Shown here one piece after another: positions 15,896 to 58,813 of a stretch of DNA of 64,000 bases. Within the stretch, counting starts at the first letter, position 1, and every line of letters begins with the position of its first letter. The notes under the pieces were generated by a model. That model was not told the DNA's origin. It saw nothing but the letters and a program-made list of their open reading frames with translations, and made no database searches. The stretch covers positions 1-64,000 of the forward strand of contig JAAFIL010000015.1 in the NCBI GenBank assembly GCA_013297775.1, read 5' to 3'. The DNA is from Bacteroidota bacterium. GTDB taxonomy: Bacteria; Bacteroidota; Bacteroidia; B-17B0; Aurantibacillaceae. The position numbers were made by a program, and so were the translations under genes.

Positions 15896-16018
15896 CGATT
15901 TAGCTCAATTACATTTCGATACGAAAAACGTAGGCACAGTAACAAGAATATTTTCAACAAAGTAGAATCGTAAATTTTAATTCGTTACGAGAGTAAACGA
16001 CCCATCAAATTGGTATTA
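15896..16018 (+). repeat. Dispersed repeat family 2, left copy flanking the orphan cassette
   Basis: Shares long blocks with 18797-18938 in the same orientation: TTTAGnTCAATTACA near the start, GAATATTTTCAACnAAGTAGA near 15947, and AAACGACCCATCAAATTGGT at the end. A third, more diverged copy lies at 48951-49223. No coding potential. The two copies bracket the three-gene cassette. Confidence 0.65.
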
Positions 16019-18519: not shown

Positions 18520-18681
18520 ATACCAATATCGGTTCTAAAGGATGCAAGTTGAACCAGAATTATTTTTCTTTTAGGCGACGAAAAAATTATAGGTGTAGCA
18601 AGGCCTACGGGTATAATTTTTGAGGAAGTATAAGAGAAAAAGAAACTGGGTCAACGTATCTTTTAGAAATGATGTTGGTAT
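18520..18681 (-). mobile_element. 162-bp hairpin element, copy A (inverted orientation)
   Basis: Near-identical, in reverse complement, to 49039-49200 and 57921-58082. All three are 162 bases. The ends are imperfect inverted repeats of about 35 bases (ATACCAAyATC... and ...GATATTGGTAT), and the middle pairs with itself, so the whole element can fold into one long hairpin. No open frame. It sits 36 bases after the orphan cassette and could also end its transcription. Confidence 0.8.
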
Positions 18682-18796: not shown

Positions 18797-18938
18797 CAAT
18801 TTAGTTCAATTACAAGTTCATAACCATACAACGACATGAAAAACGAAAGTATTAGGACCGCTCCAGGGAATATTTTCAACGAAGTAGAACCGTAAGTTTT
18901 AATTTGTCAAGAGATCAAACGACCCATCAAATTGGTAA
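18797..18938 (+). repeat. Dispersed repeat family 2, right copy flanking the orphan cassette
   Basis: Same orientation as 15896-16018, sharing TTTAGTTCAATTACA, GAATATTTTCAACGAAGTAG and AAACGACCCATCAAATTGGT. Internal parts differ by indels. With the left copy it brackets genes 16155-18484 and hairpin copy A. Confidence 0.65.
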
Positions 18939-19043: not shown

Positions 19044-21866
19044 ATGAAAAATTATTTACTGTTATTAATTACCATTTGCATCACCACACTTAAAGCGCAA
19101 ATTAATTTAGGCGACCGCTTAAAAGATAAAGCCAATCAAGCGAAAGAAAAAACAAAACAAGCCGTTCGCGAAAAAACAACCGAACAATGGGAGAAAAAAA
19201 GTCAAGAGTATGATGCTAGCAATTTTAATTACGCCATCTCTTTTTTAGACAATACCGGATTATTCGAGTCTAGCGAAAAAGGCAACATATTTAGCAGCAT
19301 GTTACTAAACTCGGCTAAAGTAGCCAGCGGCGAAGGTAAAAGCGTTGAAGACCGCGCCTATACTAATTTAAAAAATGGCGAAATTTTAATGGCCTCGAAC
19401 CAGCCCGCAATGGCCGAACAAAGTTTTAAACTGGCTAAAACACTATACGAAACCGATAACAAAACCAACACACTCAACTACTCGCAAGTAATTAGTGATT
19501 TAGGGTTATTATATCAATCGCGTGGACGCTATACTAATGCCAAAACCTTTAACGAAGAAGCCATTTCCTTGCGTGAAAAACTAGATAATAAAGGCATGTT
19601 AGCCGTTTCGTATAACAACATGGGCGTTTTAAAAAAAGAAACGGGTTACTACATAGAAGCCGAATCATTTTTTAAAAAAGCACAAGAACTGGCCACACAA
19701 CAAAACGATGCCTTATCGTCGGCATTAATAAAAAATAATTTGGCCATGACCTATTTAGAAATGAATAAACTCAATGATGCCGAAAATTTGATGAAAACCT
19801 CACTAACCGAAGCTGCTACTGTATTAAAAGAGGATGCCTCTAACTACATTAAGCTGCAAATTAATTTAGCCAACATTTACCGCTTCCAAAAAAAATACAC
19901 CGATGCCGAAACTATTTTTTTAAAAGCCATCAAAGAAAAGGAAAAAAAATTAGGCACACATCCCGACTTAGCCCACCTTAAAAGTGGTTTAGCGCAATTG
20001 TATATGGATATGGATAAAACCAACGAAGTTGAAAAACTATTACTTAGTGCGTATGATATTAATAAACGTAAACTCGGTGAAAAAAATCCAGCCACAGCCA
20101 GCGCACAACAAGAACTTGGCAATTTTTACCGCTTCACACGTAACGAAACAAAAGCTATTGACTTATTGCAAAAAGTAGTGAATACTAAAAAAGAAATGTA
20201 TGGCGAGGATCATCCTAACTACATCCAAGCCCTCGAAGACCTTGCCATTGCTCAATCGCAGAACAACACAATTGCACCTGCTAAAGAAAATTACTTAACT
20301 GTCATTGCTAATACCCAAAAATACATCAACACCTATTTCAACACCCTTAACGATAACGAAAAAACATTGTACTGGGATAAAACATCCAATCGCTTGCAAC
20401 GCTTCTATTCATTTGTTTGCCACAACAGCGAAGCACATCCCGACTTAATTAACCCATTTTATAATTCTGCCATTAATACCAAAGGCTTTTTACTAAGCAA
20501 CTCTTCACAAATACGCGATATTATTGCCGAAAGCACCGACCCAGGTTTAAAAGATACTTACAAACAATGGCGACTAACAAAAGAACATTTGAATAGTGCC
20601 TTCCAACTTAGTAAAGAAGAGTTAACCGAAGAGCGCATTAATCTCGATAGTTTACAAAGGCGTGCCGATGAATTAGAGCGCGAATTATCTAGCAAAAGTG
20701 CAGAGTTTAAAGCCTCTCGCGAAGTACAAATTACCAATGCACAAAGCATACAAACCCTCTTAAAAGAAAACGAAGCGGCCATCGAAATTATTGAAGTAAA
20801 CGATTACTTGAATGGCTTTACTGGCAAACAAACATTTAAGGCATTAATGGTTAAACCTTCGGGAGTTAAACTCATTCATTTAGGCGATGCAGAGGTAATT
20901 GCGGCGGCTATCAAAGCCTTCCGCGAAAAAACAATTGAACGTAAACCCGAAAATGAAGCCTACGAAGCAACTTGGAAAGTGTTAGATACCGAATTAACTG
21001 GCGTTACCAAATTATACTTGGCCTTAGATGGGGCTTATCATCAACTTAGCATCAACGCACTAAAAGATTTGAACGGTAAATATATTTTAGACAAATACAC
21101 CATTCAATTTGTGGGCAACACAAAAGATTTAATAAACCTAAAACAAAGCGATACCAAATGGAGTAAACCCAAAAATGCGTTGTTAATTGGTAATCCATTT
21201 TATGGTAAAAACGAAATGGTAGCGCAACTCCCCGGCACCGAAACCGAAGTGAAAAACATAAAAAAAACACTGAGTGCTTTTGGCGTTATCAACGAAGCAC
21301 TAATTGGTGTTAATGCTACCGAAACCAAAGTAAAAAAAGCGAAATCGCCAAGCATCTTGCACATTGCCACACACGGCTACTTTTTGCCCGATGTAAGCAA
21401 CATAGAAGCTACTAAAGTATTAGGAGTTGATGTTAACGCAGCCAAACAAAATCCCTTGCTACGAAGTGGCGTTTTATTAGCTAACTGCGATAACGTATTT
21501 GATGAAAATTACAGGGCAGGCGATGCCGATAATGGTATTTTAACGGCCTACGAAGCCATGACCATGAATTTAAGTAAAACCGATTTGGTAGTGCTAAGTG
21601 CCTGCGAAACAGGACTAGGAAGCGTAAAGCAAGGCGAAGGTGTTTTTGGCTTGCAACGGGCGTTCTTAATTGCGGGTGCAAAAAGTATTATCATGAGTTT
21701 ATGGAGTGTAAGCGATGCCGCCACCATGGAGTTAATGACTTTATTTTATACCAATTACGCCAAAACAGGCGATAAACAAACAGCATTTGCAAACGCACAA
21801 AAACAATTAAAAACAAAATACAAAGATCCGTTTTTTTGGAGTGCCTTTGTAATGCTCAGTAAATAA
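19044..21866 (+). CDS. Secreted TPR-CHAT protease-like protein
   Basis: 940 residues. Signal peptide 1-19 (..TTLKAQ). Residues about 20-60 are a charged Lys/Gln/Glu helix. Residues about 105-420 hold many TPR units (SYNNMGVLKKETGYYIEAES and similar, of the kinesin-light-chain/Fis1 42-residue type). A helical, coiled-coil-like linker covers about 500-575, and a CHAT domain runs from about 600 to the end. The caspase-like dyad is intact: His777 in HIATHGYF and Cys854 in LSACETG. CHAT domains are cysteine proteases; several act in defence or programmed death, but this one is exported. The DUF1501 gene starts one base after its stop, so the two products probably work together. Confidence 0.9.
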   Translation: MKNYLLLLITICITTLKAQINLGDRLKDKANQAKEKTKQAVREKTTEQWEKKSQEYDASNFNYAISFLDNTGLFESSEKGNIFSSMLLNSAKVASGEGKSVEDRAYTNLKNGEILMASNQPAMAEQSFKLAKTLYETDNKTNTLNYSQVISDLGLLYQSRGRYTNAKTFNEEAISLREKLDNKGMLAVSYNNMGVLKKETGYYIEAESFFKKAQELATQQNDALSSALIKNNLAMTYLEMNKLNDAENLMKTSLTEAATVLKEDASNYIKLQINLANIYRFQKKYTDAETIFLKAIKEKEKKLGTHPDLAHLKSGLAQLYMDMDKTNEVEKLLLSAYDINKRKLGEKNPATASAQQELGNFYRFTRNETKAIDLLQKVVNTKKEMYGEDHPNYIQALEDLAIAQSQNNTIAPAKENYLTVIANTQKYINTYFNTLNDNEKTLYWDKTSNRLQRFYSFVCHNSEAHPDLINPFYNSAINTKGFLLSNSSQIRDIIAESTDPGLKDTYKQWRLTKEHLNSAFQLSKEELTEERINLDSLQRRADELERELSSKSAEFKASREVQITNAQSIQTLLKENEAAIEIIEVNDYLNGFTGKQTFKALMVKPSGVKLIHLGDAEVIAAAIKAFREKTIERKPENEAYEATWKVLDTELTGVTKLYLALDGAYHQLSINALKDLNGKYILDKYTIQFVGNTKDLINLKQSDTKWSKPKNALLIGNPFYGKNEMVAQLPGTETEVKNIKKTLSAFGVINEALIGVNATETKVKKAKSPSILHIATHGYFLPDVSNIEATKVLGVDVNAAKQNPLLRSGVLLANCDNVFDENYRAGDADNGILTAYEAMTMNLSKTDLVVLSACETGLGSVKQGEGVFGLQRAFLIAGAKSIIMSLWSVSDAATMELMTLFYTNYAKTGDKQTAFANAQKQLKTKYKDPFFWSAFVMLSK

Positions 21867-48916: not shown

Positions 48917-48950
48917 TACCGTTCGATTTCGGTAAAAAAACTTTCCATTA

Positions 48951-49038
48951 GACGATGCGAAAATCGCGGGAATAATAAAAACTAAGGCTAGTATTTCTGA
49001 CAAAGTAAAATTGTAAATTTTCGTTTGGGATCGGGCTT
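48951..49038 (+). repeat. Dispersed repeat family 2, diverged third copy (left part)
   Basis: CGATGCGAAAATCG, ACAAAGTAAAATTGTAAATTTT and the following bases align with the corresponding parts of 15896-16018, less well than the two cassette copies do. The family's right end (ATCAAATTGGTAT) follows only after hairpin copy B, at 49210-49222, so copy B appears to interrupt it. Confidence 0.45.
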
Positions 49039-49200
49039 ATACCAACATCATTTCTAAAAGATACGTTGACCCAGTTTCTTTTTCTCTTATACTTCCTCAA
49101 AAATTATACTCGTAGGCCTTGCTACGCCTATAATTTTTTCGTCGCCTAAAAGAAAAATAATTCTGGTTCAACTTGTATCTTTTAGAACCGATATTGGTAT
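49039..49200 (+). mobile_element. 162-bp hairpin element, copy B
   Basis: Near-identical to 57921-58082 (same strand) and to the reverse complement of 18520-18681; only a few single-base differences are visible. Imperfect terminal inverted repeats start ATACCAACATC and end GATATTGGTAT. If TA is the target, each end could carry one TA. No open frame inside. Confidence 0.8.
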
Positions 49201-49231
49201 TAATCACTAATCAAATTGGTATAATTCAGAA

Positions 49232-51937: not shown

Positions 51938-52307
51938 ATAATAGTTCCATGTTCTGTTAATGCAAAATTATACAACATTTCATACCGATAGATTTTAAGT
52001 TAATGGATTGATTCTTTTTTGAGCGTGCCCCCTTATCCATCTCTAGAAGTTCTATTCAGATATTAGTTAATGGCTGGCTGCGCAGTTAAAAAGCACAGTT
52101 ACCATCAAAGTCGGGGTCGGGCTATCGGCTTTAGCCAATGCGGCTTTGGCGGCTTTTGTTGCGGCTGCGGTGGCTTCTAAGGTCGCCTCCTCACTCGTAC
52201 AAAAGCACGCCAACGCCCACACTGGGCTGTCACCGAATTTATATTGAGCGAAGTCGAAATATCCCTCACGTAAGAAGAGTTCGTCTTGTTATAAATGTAT
52301 TCTATCT
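51938..52307. other. Gap with a GC-richer patch that keeps an open minus-strand frame
   Basis: 52072-52230 is clearly more GC-rich than its surroundings. On the minus strand it reads, without a clean start, TSEEATLEATAAATKAA and ADSPTPTLMVTVLFNCAAS before a stop near 52071. It could be the tail of a decayed gene or chance. The plus-strand frame here runs into the tandem repeats and is not credible. A TTGAGCGAAGTCGAAAT motif lies near 52244. Confidence 0.35.
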
Positions 52308-52606
52308 AACACCAACTAAAAATTCATTCCTTCCTCAGCGAACTTTGCGTCCTTTGCGTGCCATACTCATTTCAAATCATTTAGCTCATCCAACTTAACA
52401 AACACCAACTATAAATTCATTTTTTTCTTTGCGAACTTTGCGTCCTTTGCGTGCCATACTCATCCCAACCATTTAACCCATCTAACTTAACAAACAAACA
52501 CCAACTATAAATTCATTTTTTTCTTTGCGAACTCTTTGCGCCTTTGCGTGCCATACTCATCCCAACCATTTAACCCATCTAACTTAACAAACTAACACCA
52601 ACTACA
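52308..52606. repeat. Tandem array of about 95-bp units (three full, one partial)
   Basis: Each unit starts AACACCAACTA (52308, 52401, 52497, partial at 52594) and contains GCGAACTTTGCG followed by CCTTTGCGTGCCATACTCAT. Units differ by a few bases. The TTTGCG...GTGCCA core is the reverse complement of the dispersed motif at 5885-5967. Not a CRISPR: units are contiguous with no spacers. Confidence 0.8.
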
Positions 52607-52681
52607 AATCCCTCCCCTCGCGTGCAAACTATTTTGCTTACACAAATCGCTTTAACTCTTTAAATTGAATACTTTTGTAAC

Positions 52682-53992: not shown

Positions 53993-56900
53993 ATGAAAAC
54001 CATTCTATTTTTGACATCTATTTTGCTTTTGACCTTAAACACATTGGCACAACAAACAGGAGACACCATTGTGGTAAAAGCCTTTAAGTATGGCAGTAAC
54101 TCGCGCGATACACTTATTCAATTTCCAAACACCAATCAAACGTATGAGAAGATTATCTTGAAGTATAACATGCGTTGTAAAAACGGTTTGGTTTCAACAC
54201 AATCGCAACGAAACTTAGGCTGCGGCGAATGGGATTATTCGTGTAATACCTACATTGCCGACTCGTCGCGTATAGATGAAGAATTAAACACGCATCCCAA
54301 CTACATTATTACCAATTTTTCGGGCAATACATTTAACTATACAACTACTCAACCTTACGACTACTATAACTACACACAAACCCAAGTAAATTATAGTGTG
54401 GTAAGCGAAAGCTCTTACACAGCTGGTATCGGCGCAAGCCTCGATAATAACTTAATGAATACCACACAACAATCGGGACGAGCGCAGTTACTATACACCG
54501 CTGCCGAATTAATTGCGGCTGGCTTTAGTGCCGGAGCAATAGATGGTATTTTAGTGAACGTGAGCAATACAGGCGGAACCGCAAATTTTTTCAGGATGGG
54601 TTTAAAACAAACAACGCTAACCGCCGTCAACACAACATCGGTAAATACCAGCGGGTTTACAAACGTATATCTGCGTAACACCACCTTCAACACTGGGCTT
54701 AACCGAATTCAATTTCACACGCCCTTTAATTGGAATGGAACCAGTAACTTATTGATTGATTACTCGTTTACCAACTCTTCGCCAAGTAATGCCATAACGC
54801 TTGTTGGTGCCACAACTCCCACAGTAATGGCAGCTTATGCCAACACCAATGCCGCTCTCGATTTATCGAATAATGGCCGAGCAATTATTAATGCCGCTCT
54901 CATGTCTAACATTTCGAGTGAAGTTACCATTTCGTTTTGGGCCTATGGTTACAGCAATCAATTGCCTACCAACACCAGTATTTTATATGCCACACCAACC
55001 AACACTGCACAACGCAGTTTAAACATACATTTACCTTGGAGCGATAACACGATTTATTTTGATTGCGGTGTAAATACCAATACAAGTAACTTCGATCGCC
55101 TCAGTAAAGCCGCAGTAGCAGCCAACATTGGCGGACAGTGGAACCATTGGGCGTTTATAAAAAATCTTAGCACTGGCGATATGCGCATTTTCTTAAATGG
55201 TAATCCTTGGGCATTTACTTCTAACAAATATTGGGCTATATCGTTTGTGAATTTAATTTTAGGAAGCGATTATAACGGCAACAATAACTATAAAGGTAAA
55301 GTTAATGAGTTAGCCATTTGGAACAGAGAATTTTCGTCGCAAGAAATAAAAGATTATTTTCTAAAAAGTATTAACAACACACATCCCTTTTATAGCAACT
55401 TAATAGCCTACTATAAACTGAACGAAGGCAACGGTTTAGTAATTAACGATACAAAAGGAAATTTAACTTCTAATTGCACCAACACCTCGTGGACTTATGA
55501 CAGAGGGCATACTTTAACCCGTATGTTTAACGACAATACGGTGCGCCCCACACTCGTTTTTTTACGTGGCAGTTACAATTTAACCACAACAACTTTAACC
55601 GTAAAAGATTCTTTACCACGTGTGCCATTTAGTGTACGTCAGTTTAGTATCATTTCCAATGCTGGTGCTACTACATTTACCAATGATGTTGTGATACAAA
55701 CCGCATCGTTTCAATCGCATCAAGCTCTATCGAATACTTATAATGGAGACACAGGTGCCTTAACTGCTACACTTGCCTTGCCCGCAGATGGTACTTATAA
55801 CATTACTAATTTACCATACTATAACCGCTATCCATTTTATAACGAGTTGCTATCTTTTGTAACGCCCTACGGTATTGGATTAGATATGGGCATGAATGGT
55901 AAAACATGGTATTTTGATGTGAGTGATTTAGCCCCACTTTTAAAAGGACCGAAACGGTTTTTAATGTCGCAGGGCGGCGAGTACCAAGAGCAAATGGATA
56001 TAGATTTTTGGTTTATTGTAGGCACACCGCCTCGCACAGTAGTAGAGTATAAGCAGTTATGGTCGGCTTCGCACCGCGGGCAAACTAGTATTGGAAGTAT
56101 TTTAAACAACACGCGTTTTGCACCACTCAACGTGGCTTTAAAACCGAATGCGCAATTTTTTAAATTACGCTCTTCCATTACTGGACACGGCAGCGAGGGC
56201 GAGTTTGGTCAAAACGGTGGCACTATACAACATTACTTAAACATAAATGGTGGTGCCAACGAATTTGCTTGGCCCATAACAGAACGTTGTGCGTTTAATC
56301 CAGTATATCCACAAGGTGGCACTTGGGTTTACGACCGCCAAGGTTGGTGCCCCGGGCAAGCCAGCCTTTTAAAAGAGAATAACCTTACCCCTTTTGTAAC
56401 ACCAGGCTCTACGGTATCTATTGATTACAATTGCATCAATCCACCTGTGGCCAATGGCGATTACCGTTACCATGTATCGCATCAACTAATTAGTTACGGT
56501 GGTGCTAATCACACCCTCGATGCCAACTTAGTAGAAGTAAGTATGCCAAGTAATAAAGTGCTTTATTCGCGCACCAATCCTATGTGTGCCTATCCAGTTA
56601 TTAAAGTTCAAAACACGGGTTCTTCGCCGCTTACCTCTTTACAAATAGAGTATTGGCTCAATAGTGCTACTGCTAAACAAAGCTATACGTGGACTGGTAA
56701 CTTGTCGTTTATGGATACAACCAGTATTACTTTACCTATTGGAACATTGTGGCAAAGTGGGATACAAAGTAGTGGTAATGTGTTTAATGCTGAACTTAAA
56801 AAAGCAAATAGCAATACCGATCAATACAGTTACAACAATACTTATCGCTCTCCATTTTCGATTGCAGATATATTAACCAATACCATTGTGGTTGAATTTA

Positions 56901-57460
56901 AAACCAACAATTACCCATCCGAAAATACTTATAAACTGATAGATGAAAATGGCAACACCTTACCAGGAGTTAGCACCATCACACTTGCCAACACCACTTA
57001 TACCGACACCTATCAATTAACTGGAGGCTGCTACCGCTTAGTGGTTACCGACTCGGGTGAAGATGGCGTACAATGGTGGGCAAGTACCAGTCAAGGCTCG
57101 GGCTTTATCCGATTTAAAAATGAAAGTGGTACCATCATTAAAACTTTTCAACCCGATTTTGGTGGAGGATTTGAATACAGTTTTAGCGCAGCTTCTTTAC
57201 AAAACATTTCAGAAAATGAATTAACGGCCAATGTGCGCATTTACCCAAACCCTGCCCATCACTTTTTTTATGTGAGTGGTACTGCTTTAGAAAATGCAAA
57301 CTTGCGTTTAACCGATTTACTAGGTAAAGAAATGGGTACAAATATCACCAAAGAAAACGGGCAATACTTGGTAAATACTAAAGCCTTGAGTCCTGGGGTG
57401 TATATACTCGAAATTAGTAAAGATGGCCAAACAGGAACAAAGAAAATAGTTGTGTATTAA
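53993..57460 (+). CDS. PNGase F-like T9SS protein with LamG-type insertion
   Basis: 1155 residues. Signal peptide 1-19. The N-terminal region fits PNGase F domain 1: TLIQFPNTNQTYEKIILKYN and the catalytic-Asp motif CGEWD (Asp81). A concanavalin/LamG-like domain is inserted at about 287-459 (EVTISFWAYGY ... KVNELAIWNREF). The PNGase F second domain resumes at about 650-800 with FKLRSSITGHG and NPVYPQGGTWVYDRQGWCPG. A type A T9SS sorting domain ends the protein (YPNPAHH ... GVYILEISKDG). PNGase F removes N-glycans from glycoproteins. Asp is conserved, but the segment holding catalytic Glu206 differs, so activity is uncertain. Confidence 0.8.
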   Translation: MKTILFLTSILLLTLNTLAQQTGDTIVVKAFKYGSNSRDTLIQFPNTNQTYEKIILKYNMRCKNGLVSTQSQRNLGCGEWDYSCNTYIADSSRIDEELNTHPNYIITNFSGNTFNYTTTQPYDYYNYTQTQVNYSVVSESSYTAGIGASLDNNLMNTTQQSGRAQLLYTAAELIAAGFSAGAIDGILVNVSNTGGTANFFRMGLKQTTLTAVNTTSVNTSGFTNVYLRNTTFNTGLNRIQFHTPFNWNGTSNLLIDYSFTNSSPSNAITLVGATTPTVMAAYANTNAALDLSNNGRAIINAALMSNISSEVTISFWAYGYSNQLPTNTSILYATPTNTAQRSLNIHLPWSDNTIYFDCGVNTNTSNFDRLSKAAVAANIGGQWNHWAFIKNLSTGDMRIFLNGNPWAFTSNKYWAISFVNLILGSDYNGNNNYKGKVNELAIWNREFSSQEIKDYFLKSINNTHPFYSNLIAYYKLNEGNGLVINDTKGNLTSNCTNTSWTYDRGHTLTRMFNDNTVRPTLVFLRGSYNLTTTTLTVKDSLPRVPFSVRQFSIISNAGATTFTNDVVIQTASFQSHQALSNTYNGDTGALTATLALPADGTYNITNLPYYNRYPFYNELLSFVTPYGIGLDMGMNGKTWYFDVSDLAPLLKGPKRFLMSQGGEYQEQMDIDFWFIVGTPPRTVVEYKQLWSASHRGQTSIGSILNNTRFAPLNVALKPNAQFFKLRSSITGHGSEGEFGQNGGTIQHYLNINGGANEFAWPITERCAFNPVYPQGGTWVYDRQGWCPGQASLLKENNLTPFVTPGSTVSIDYNCINPPVANGDYRYHVSHQLISYGGANHTLDANLVEVSMPSNKVLYSRTNPMCAYPVIKVQNTGSSPLTSLQIEYWLNSATAKQSYTWTGNLSFMDTTSITLPIGTLWQSGIQSSGNVFNAELKKANSNTDQYSYNNTYRSPFSIADILTNTIVVEFKTNNYPSENTYKLIDENGNTLPGVSTITLANTTYTDTYQLTGGCYRLVVTDSGEDGVQWWASTSQGSGFIRFKNESGTIIKTFQPDFGGGFEYSFSAASLQNISENELTANVRIYPNPAHHFFYVSGTALENANLRLTDLLGKEMGTNITKENGQYLVNTKALSPGVYILEISKDGQTGTKKIVVY

Positions 57461-57850: not shown

Positions 57851-57920
57851 CTATTTAAAACAGGCTGCATCAATTCTTAAATGAATGCTATCATGCCTGA
57901 TAAATCGCCGTTCTTGCCTT

Positions 57921-58082
57921 ATACCATTATCATTTCTAAAAGATACGTTGACCCAGTTTCTTTTTCTCTTATACTTCCTCAAAAATTATACCCGTAGGCC
58001 TTGCTACGCCTATAATTTTTTCGTCGCCTAAAAGAAAAATAATTCTGGTTCAACTTGTATCTTTTAGAACCGATATTGGTAT
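57921..58082 (+). mobile_element. 162-bp hairpin element, copy C
   Basis: Near-identical to 49039-49200, differing by about three bases (for example ACCATTATC for ACCAACATC). The last base, 58082, is also the first base (on the plus strand) of the psd stop codon, so the element abuts and contributes to the end of that gene. Confidence 0.8.
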
Positions 58083-58738
58083 TAGAACTCTCCTAGCACA
58101 GATTGCGAGCCTTTTACTACATCGCCAATTTTGACGTTTAGTTGGGTGCCTATTGGCAAAAATAAATCTACGCGTGAGCCAAACTTAATGAATCCCATTT
58201 CGCCACATTGCTCGGCAACATCGCCTTCTTTGCAATACCAAACAATGCGCCGTGCCAATGCGCCTGCAATTTGACGAAATAAAATTTCTTGTCCGTTTTT
58301 ATGCGCTACTACCACCGTTGTGCGCTCGTTATCGGTGCTACTTTTTGGTTCCCATGCCGCCAAAAATTTACCAGGATGGTACTTAAAAAACTTTACATGA
58401 CCCGCAATGGGGTAGCGGTTAACGTGCACATTAATCGGACTCATAAAAATACTTACCTGCAAACGTTTGCCTTTAAAATATTCGGCTTCTTCGGTTTCTT
58501 CTATAACTACCACTTTACCATCGGCAGGGGCAATAATTAAACGATCGCCTTGCGTAAATTGACGGGTAGGGCTTCTAAAAAATTGTAAAATAGTAAGGGT
58601 TAAAAATCCGCTCAACGCATAAGCAAATAACTTGGCAATAAAAAATTGAGGAAAAAAGTAGTGCGCAATAAAAATAACGAGGGCACTAAATACCAATACG
58701 ATTAATAAACTGGGCCAACCTTCTTTGTGAAATTTCAT
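58082..58738 (-). CDS. psd: Phosphatidylserine decarboxylase family protein
   Basis: 218 residues from ATG 58738; the frame upstream starts only from a TTG. Two N-terminal membrane helices (about 8-55). The short (type II, 'archaetidylserine' style) decarboxylase body has ADGKVVVIEE, FMSPINVHVNRYPI (His) and the self-cleavage site GSRVDLF, where Gly-Ser is cut to make the pyruvoyl group. It forms phosphatidylethanolamine from phosphatidylserine at the inner membrane. Shorter than E. coli Psd, as normal for this subfamily. Its stop overlaps hairpin copy C. Confidence 0.9.
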   Translation of the reverse strand: MKFHKEGWPSLLIVLVFSALVIFIAHYFFPQFFIAKLFAYALSGFLTLTILQFFRSPTRQFTQGDRLIIAPADGKVVVIEETEEAEYFKGKRLQVSIFMSPINVHVNRYPIAGHVKFFKYHPGKFLAAWEPKSSTDNERTTVVVAHKNGQEILFRQIAGALARRIVWYCKEGDVAEQCGEMGFIKFGSRVDLFLPIGTQLNVKIGDVVKGSQSVLGEF

Positions 58739-58813
58739 AATCAAGCAATTTATCGTTTTACACGCTGTTAAATGTTTGTTCAAATATAATGCTAATTGCT
58801 TTATAAAAAAGAG

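What the first reader, a model, noticed from the sequence alone, without database searches (positions are those of the whole stretch)
18520..18681. Family of near-identical 162-bp hairpin elements (three copies in 40 kb)
Copies at 18520-18681 (inverted), 49039-49200 and 57921-58082 are all exactly 162 bases and differ at only a few positions. The imperfect 35-base ends and self-pairing middle let the whole element fold as one hairpin. Near identity means recent movement. It resembles a MITE or a REPIN-like element and could also end transcription in both directions.
Basis: partly seen in the sequence, partly recalled or inferred. Interest (0 to 1): 0.7.

Follow-up and report, generated by a model that had tools for sequence, protein, structure and literature searches.

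The report
Hairpin jumping DNA with swappable ends
The three near-identical 162-base hairpins are copies of a small gene-less jumping element, present about 100 times in this Bacteroidota genome, and its relatives across the class keep the same roughly 160-base hairpin plan and inner sequence while their ends differ, which is the reverse of what such elements usually conserve.

Summary
Three 162-bp copies differ at 3-5 positions and fold as one hairpin. The genome holds about 100 copies: 96 core matches at up to 3 mismatches. The true unit is 160 bp, TACCAA...TTGGTA, flanked by a 3-bp TNA target duplication, not TA. Of 80 full copies, 70 carry the same TNA on both sides; shuffles give a mean of 28 and a maximum of 42. 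Copy 49039-49200 sits inside an older repeat whose unoccupied copies have exactly the predicted length. It is a MITE-type element, not a REPIN. No transposase with matching ends was found, so the partner is inferred from the TNA signature (IS1031/IS5-like). What goes beyond an ordinary MITE: relatives in several Bacteroidia families keep a ~160-bp hairpin and inner core while the ~30-bp arms differ, and the core stems covary. Copies are enriched between convergent genes (41 of 80 against 18.5% of spacer bases, p = 4e-11), with terminator-like signals on both strands. A terminator role is plausible but untested.

The parts
18521..18680 (-). Hairpin MITE copy 1 (160-bp unit)
   Evidence: flanking triplets TCA/TAA in element orientation, so the duplication is imperfect
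49040..49199 (+). Hairpin MITE copy 2 (160-bp unit), nested in an older repeat
49037..49039 (.). TTA target duplication, left of copy 2
49200..49202 (.). TTA target duplication, right of copy 2
57922..58081 (+). Hairpin MITE copy 3 (160-bp unit)
57919..57921 (.). TTA target duplication, left of copy 3
58082..58084 (.). TTA target duplication, right of copy 3; read on the minus strand it is also the TAA stop of the phosphatidylserine decarboxylase-like gene 58082-58783
49070..49168 (+). Conserved core of copy 2 (model R1)
57952..58050 (+). Conserved core of copy 3
18552..18650 (-). Conserved core of copy 1
49111..49139 (+). Apical stem CGTAG/CTACG with T-run, terminator-like; a counterpart is called on the minus strand
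49013..49221 (+). Part of an older repeat that holds copy 2; joining its flanks with one TTA kept gives 46 bp
15970..16015 (+). Unoccupied copy of that older repeat (related empty site), 46 bp
18892..18937 (+). Second unoccupied copy of that older repeat, 46 bp

Best explanation
The repeat is a non-autonomous transposable element (MITE type) of 160 bp. Shown: it has TACCAA...TTGGTA ends with imperfect inverted arms, duplicates a 3-bp TNA target on insertion, encodes nothing evident, and has amplified recently to about 100 copies. Inferred: a DDE transposase of the IS1031/IS5 (PIF-Harbinger-like) type, supplied from elsewhere and not found in this draft assembly, binds the two arms and pastes the element into TNA sites. 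Shown: related elements in other Bacteroidia families keep a hairpin of about 160 bp with a common ~100-bp core, whose stems change in compensating pairs, while the outer ~30-bp arms differ between lineages. Inferred: arms are fitted to, or exchanged for, whichever transposase is at hand, while the core hairpin is kept for its structure. The most likely role of the core is as a two-way transcription stop, which makes insertions less harmful, especially between convergent genes.
For: Copy identity and hairpin. Copy number. TNA duplication: 70 of 80 full copies against shuffle mean 28 and maximum 42. Related empty site: 46 bp in all three copies of the host repeat once the element and one TTA are removed. 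Recent spread: mean 2.24 differences from consensus, pairwise 2.7%. Modularity: core 63-89% identical between lineages where the arms fall to 24-58% in most comparisons; same arms with another interior in L115, and same ends around another core in L296. Length: of 15 elements of the standard form 12 are 158-160 bp and 14 are 158-162 bp. Covariation of the core: 55 double-changed cells against 13.2 shuffled and 0-12 in slid controls. TNA duplications in other lineages. Context: 41 convergent, 28 tandem, 11 divergent spacers; 2 of 81 copies overlap an ORF of 100 aa or more. Terminator-like sites on both strands. IS1031 targets TNA with 3-bp duplications (PMC12016507).
Against: No transposase with TACCAA ends was found: the own-genome PF01609 hits are an IS1380-like gene at a contig end and a decayed IS5 whose ends are AGACCTCTTTCATAA; PF13586 has none; PF13359 only the decayed one. 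Scans of small contigs and solo ends also failed. Not every transposase family was searched. The reported IS1031-group end (GAACCTGTCTAGTATCT) does not resemble TACCAA. The terminator role rests on pattern and context only; insertion bias away from promoters would give the same context. In the GC-rich relative (L165) the T-run is absent.
Confidence: 0.8

Rival explanations
1. The core is a structured RNA or ssDNA element with its own function (for example a processed RNA or a protein-binding hairpin), and mobility is secondary.
For: Compensating changes in the core stems and a conserved unpaired internal loop (ACTTCYTC opposite CRTCGYC) across families; hairpin kept in a GC-rich relative with different stem sequence.
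Against: No Rfam family at gathering score; the only sub-threshold matches are miRNA precursor models far below their cut-offs, as any long hairpin gives. No expression evidence. About 100 near-identical copies at TNA sites show that mobility is recent.
Confidence: 0.25
2. An ordinary MITE family: the core is simply inherited from one ancestor and the arms drift faster because transposases diverge; no function for the core.
For: Turnover of ends following transposase divergence is expected; the sample was gathered by core similarity, which favours conserved cores.
Against: Hairpin pairing in the core is kept by double changes far above shuffled and slid controls, and total length is nearly constant although arm length was not used in the search.
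Confidence: 0.3
3. REPIN-like elements moved by a RAYT (Y1) transposase.
For: Hairpins in intergenic DNA at high copy; GTAG at the hairpin apex recalls REP tags (PMC3733652).
Against: 3-bp TNA duplications and long inverted ends are not features of REPINs; no RAYT search was run.
Confidence: 0.04
4. The core is the remnant of a protein-coding 3' end of the parent transposon.
For: On the reverse strand some lineages read DDEKxxCVAxATxxFFEEV followed by a stop (sequence).
Against: The frame is broken by stops or indels in several lineages (L146, L148, L152, L153, L125), and the changes pair up as in a stem.
Confidence: 0.07

Closest known systems
Bacterial MITEs (e.g. Correia/NEMIS, ERIC, RUP from general knowledge; Cardinium MITECca01, PMC9769881; P. 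gingivalis MITE, PMC4596501)
   Same: Short, gene-less, inverted ends, target duplication, many intergenic copies, hairpin-forming.
   Different: No parent IS identified; conserved part across families is the core, not the ends; TNA target; near-constant 160-bp length.
IS1031 group of the IS5 family
   Same: 3-bp TNA target duplication (PMC12016507).
   Different: No such transposase found here; published ends (GAACCTG...) differ from TACCAA.
PIF/Harbinger-type (PHIS) eukaryotic transposons (PMC4482050)
   Same: 3-bp duplications, TNA in one group, with inverted ends.
   Different: Bacterial host, no partner known, conserved hairpin core.
REPINs / RAYT elements (PMC3116915, PMC3733652)
   Same: Intergenic hairpins at high copy.
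   Different: Here there are long inverted ends and a target duplication.

Membership tests
MITE | Short, without a transposase gene | tested here: met
   160 bp; no ORF of 80 aa or more lies inside a copy
MITE | Terminal inverted repeats | tested here: met
   TACCAACATCATTTCTAAAAGATAC versus TACCAATATCGGTTCTAAAAGATAC
MITE | Target site duplication | tested here: met
   TNA, 70 of 80 against shuffle mean 28, maximum 42; related empty site
MITE | Multiple near-identical copies | tested here: met
   96 core matches; pairwise divergence 2.7%
MITE | Ends shared with an autonomous transposon | tested here: inconclusive
   None found; draft genome, several transposase families not searched
IS1031/IS5-mobilised element | 3-bp TNA target | tested here: met
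   rule for IS1031 from PMC12016507
IS1031/IS5-mobilised element | Cognate IS1031-type transposase in the genome | tested here: not met
   PF13586 none; PF01609 and PF13359 hits have other ends; draft assembly
REPIN | No target duplication | tested here: not met
   TNA duplication present
REPIN | RAYT transposase in the genome | not tested
   No Y1_Tnp search was run
Intrinsic terminator (both strands) | GC stem followed by a T-run on each strand | tested here: met
   3 sites against 0.2 in shuffles around copy 2
Intrinsic terminator (both strands) | Stops transcription | not testable with these tools
   Needs RNA data or a reporter assay
Known Rfam RNA | Match at gathering score | tested here: not met

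The most novel reading that the evidence does not exclude
A class-wide lineage of mobile hairpins in Bacteroidia whose inherited unit is a structural core of fixed length (~160 bp in all) that swaps transposase-binding ends as partners change, so that the hairpin rather than the inverted ends defines the family.
Probability: 0.35. Interest if true: 0.75.

Novelty: new variant of a known kind. Interest (0 to 1): 0.55.

Why it matters
MITEs are normally recognised and grouped by their ends, which their transposase must read. A family that keeps a folded core and a set length across bacterial families while its ends change would mean that structure inside a MITE is selected, perhaps to stop transcription and soften insertions. 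It gives a direct test: does the core alter transcription or transposition? It also offers a covariance model with which such elements can be found where end-based tools miss them.

Tried and rejected
TA duplication: rejected, it is TNA. IS partners PF01609, PF13586, PF13359 in the own genome and genus: only unrelated ends. PF13586 across 149 class genomes: the multi-copy IS in G157 has GAGGCCATCTCAAAAATAG ends. TIR pairs spanning a gene in 698 kb of own loci (overlaps counted): none credible; solo ends in the own genome are truncated elements or contig ends. Plasmid, phage and viral-contig collections: no match. Reading the core as coding: frame broken in several lineages. G198 element L196 runs into what looks by eye like an IS1634-type fragment, taken as a neighbour and not a partner.

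Full report
Observation. The three copies are real: 162 bp each, 3-5 differences, one long imperfect hairpin with z about -10 on RNA and DNA parameters. The same element occurs about 100 times in the 4.35-Mb, 128-contig genome: 96 matches to a 28-base piece of the core at up to 3 mismatches, 93 exact left ends and 80 exact right ends. I extracted 103 non-redundant hits, some partial or cut by contig ends.

Ends and target. Lining up the flanks shows T-X-A|TACCAA...TTGGTA|T-X-A. The duplication is therefore 3 bp, TNA, and the unit is 160 bp. Of 80 full copies 70 have identical triplets on both sides; shuffling right against left flanks gives a mean of 28 and a maximum of 42. Window copies 2 and 3 have TTA/TTA; copy 1 has TCA/TAA, so its duplication is imperfect. 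Copy 2 lies inside an older repeat. Removing the element and one TTA leaves 46 bp, exactly the length of the same stretch in two unoccupied copies at 15970-16015 and 18892-18937. This is a related empty site for the insertion.

Age. The 80 full copies differ from their consensus at 2.24 positions on average, 9 are identical to it, and pairwise divergence is 2.7%. The spread is recent in sequence terms; no date can be given.

Subfamilies in the same genome. There are elements with the same ends but another interior (L115, 122 bp); elements whose ends start TACCAAGTGAACTTATATTTTAGTC or TACCAAATGCAAATATATTTTAGTC; one with the ends of the window copies (TACCAATATCGGTTCTAAAAGATAC) around a core of the class-wide type (L296); and an arms-only form of about 60 bp in L298. 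A second repeat (CCGAGATTATGCAATAG...CTATTGCATAATCTCGG) sits at the same point inside three copies (L071, L072, L073); two of the three have their own matching TNA, so the composite itself has probably moved.

Relatives elsewhere. BLAST in 60 genomes found it in three same-genus genomes besides the own one. A pattern for the core found 14 loci in Bacteroidota MAGs filed as Saprospiraceae, Sphingobacteriaceae, Sediminibacterium and unplaced Bacteroidetes. A covariance model of the core found it in 8 of 247 class genomes, including families f9, f21 and f24; those outside the genus score near 53-57 bits (E about 1e-6 to 1e-5) and are weaker.

Core against arms. Between lineages the core is 63-89% identical; arms are 24-58% in most comparisons, with higher values among own, L124, L131 and L148 and for one arm of L133/L152. 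These elements were gathered by core similarity, so that contrast is biased by selection. Two facts are less exposed to it. First, total length: the 15 elements of the standard form are 160, 160, 159, 159, 160, 159, 159, 159, 159, 159, 159, 158, 162, 162 and 167 bp, although arm length was not part of the search; the own-genome forms of 218, 219 and 122 bp carry inserts or another interior. Second, pairing: in the core alignment 90.7% of cells pair (80.6% shuffled) and 55 cells changed on both sides (13.2 shuffled, 0-12 when slid), across 9 of 22 pairs. The number of pairs with a double change is itself less striking (41 of 500 shuffles reach it), and the controls do not fully remove relatedness. 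The unpaired loop ACTTCYTC opposite CRTCGYC is among the most conserved parts. Of the 18 elements with flanks, 13 show matching TNA triplets, including G198 and OFTM40, whose ends are not TACCAA.

Partner. None found. The own genome has an IS1380-like gene at a contig end and a decayed IS5 with AGACCTCTTTCATAA ends; no PF13586. TNA with 3-bp duplications is the rule for the IS1031 group (PMC12016507), and I infer a partner of that kind, with moderate confidence only, since the published ends differ. The partner may be lost, unassembled, or of a family not searched.

Context and role. Of 80 copies with a gene on either side 41 lie between convergent genes, 28 tandem, 11 divergent; spacers without the element are 18.5% convergent by bases (p = 4e-11) or 15% by number, and 2 of 81 copies overlap an ORF of at least 100 aa where 84% of the sequence is such ORFs. 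ORF calls are simple and the background is 321 kb of the same genome. Terminator-like sites occur on both strands of copy 2 (3 against 0.2). A two-way terminator that softens insertions fits, but avoidance of promoters fits too.

Novelty. Searches of open papers found reports of MITEs in Porphyromonas (PMC4596501) and Cardinium (PMC9769881) and a review of prokaryotic MITEs in whose text no word beginning 'Bacteroid' was found (PMC10969869); nothing matched this family, but subscription papers and ISfinder were not available. I file it as a new variant of a known kind.

Noticed in passing
L071, L072, L073; L073:1495-1850: A second inverted-repeat element, CCGAGATTATGCAATAG...CTATTGCATAATCTCGG, is inserted at the same point in three copies of the MITE; related sequence also interrupts a sister element in L036.
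   Followed up: partly
window 52303-52630: Tandem repeats with a period of about 93-97 bp (families D2, D4, D5).
   Followed up: no
window 48929-49027 (-): Weak model match (29 bits, E = 0.0066) in the older repeat that hosts copy 2, possibly a decayed member of the same superfamily.
   Followed up: partly
L196:1486-1800 (-): In G198 an element end runs into an ORF that looks like the start of an IS1634-type transposase, near a contig end.
   Followed up: partly
L123:2550-3440: Decayed IS5-type transposase (HTH_Tnp_4 plus DDE_Tnp_4) with AGACCTCTTTCATAATT ends and a possible ACT duplication.
   Followed up: yes
window 19044-21866: A 940-aa TPR/CHAT-domain protein lies next to copy 1.
   Followed up: no
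window 53993-57460: A 1155-aa protein with a lectin-like domain, an N-glycanase C-terminal domain and a Por secretion tail lies upstream of copy 3.
   Followed up: no
L294, L295, L256, L297, L116: Solo left ends of the MITE with unrelated sequence following, at varied breakpoints.
   Followed up: partly
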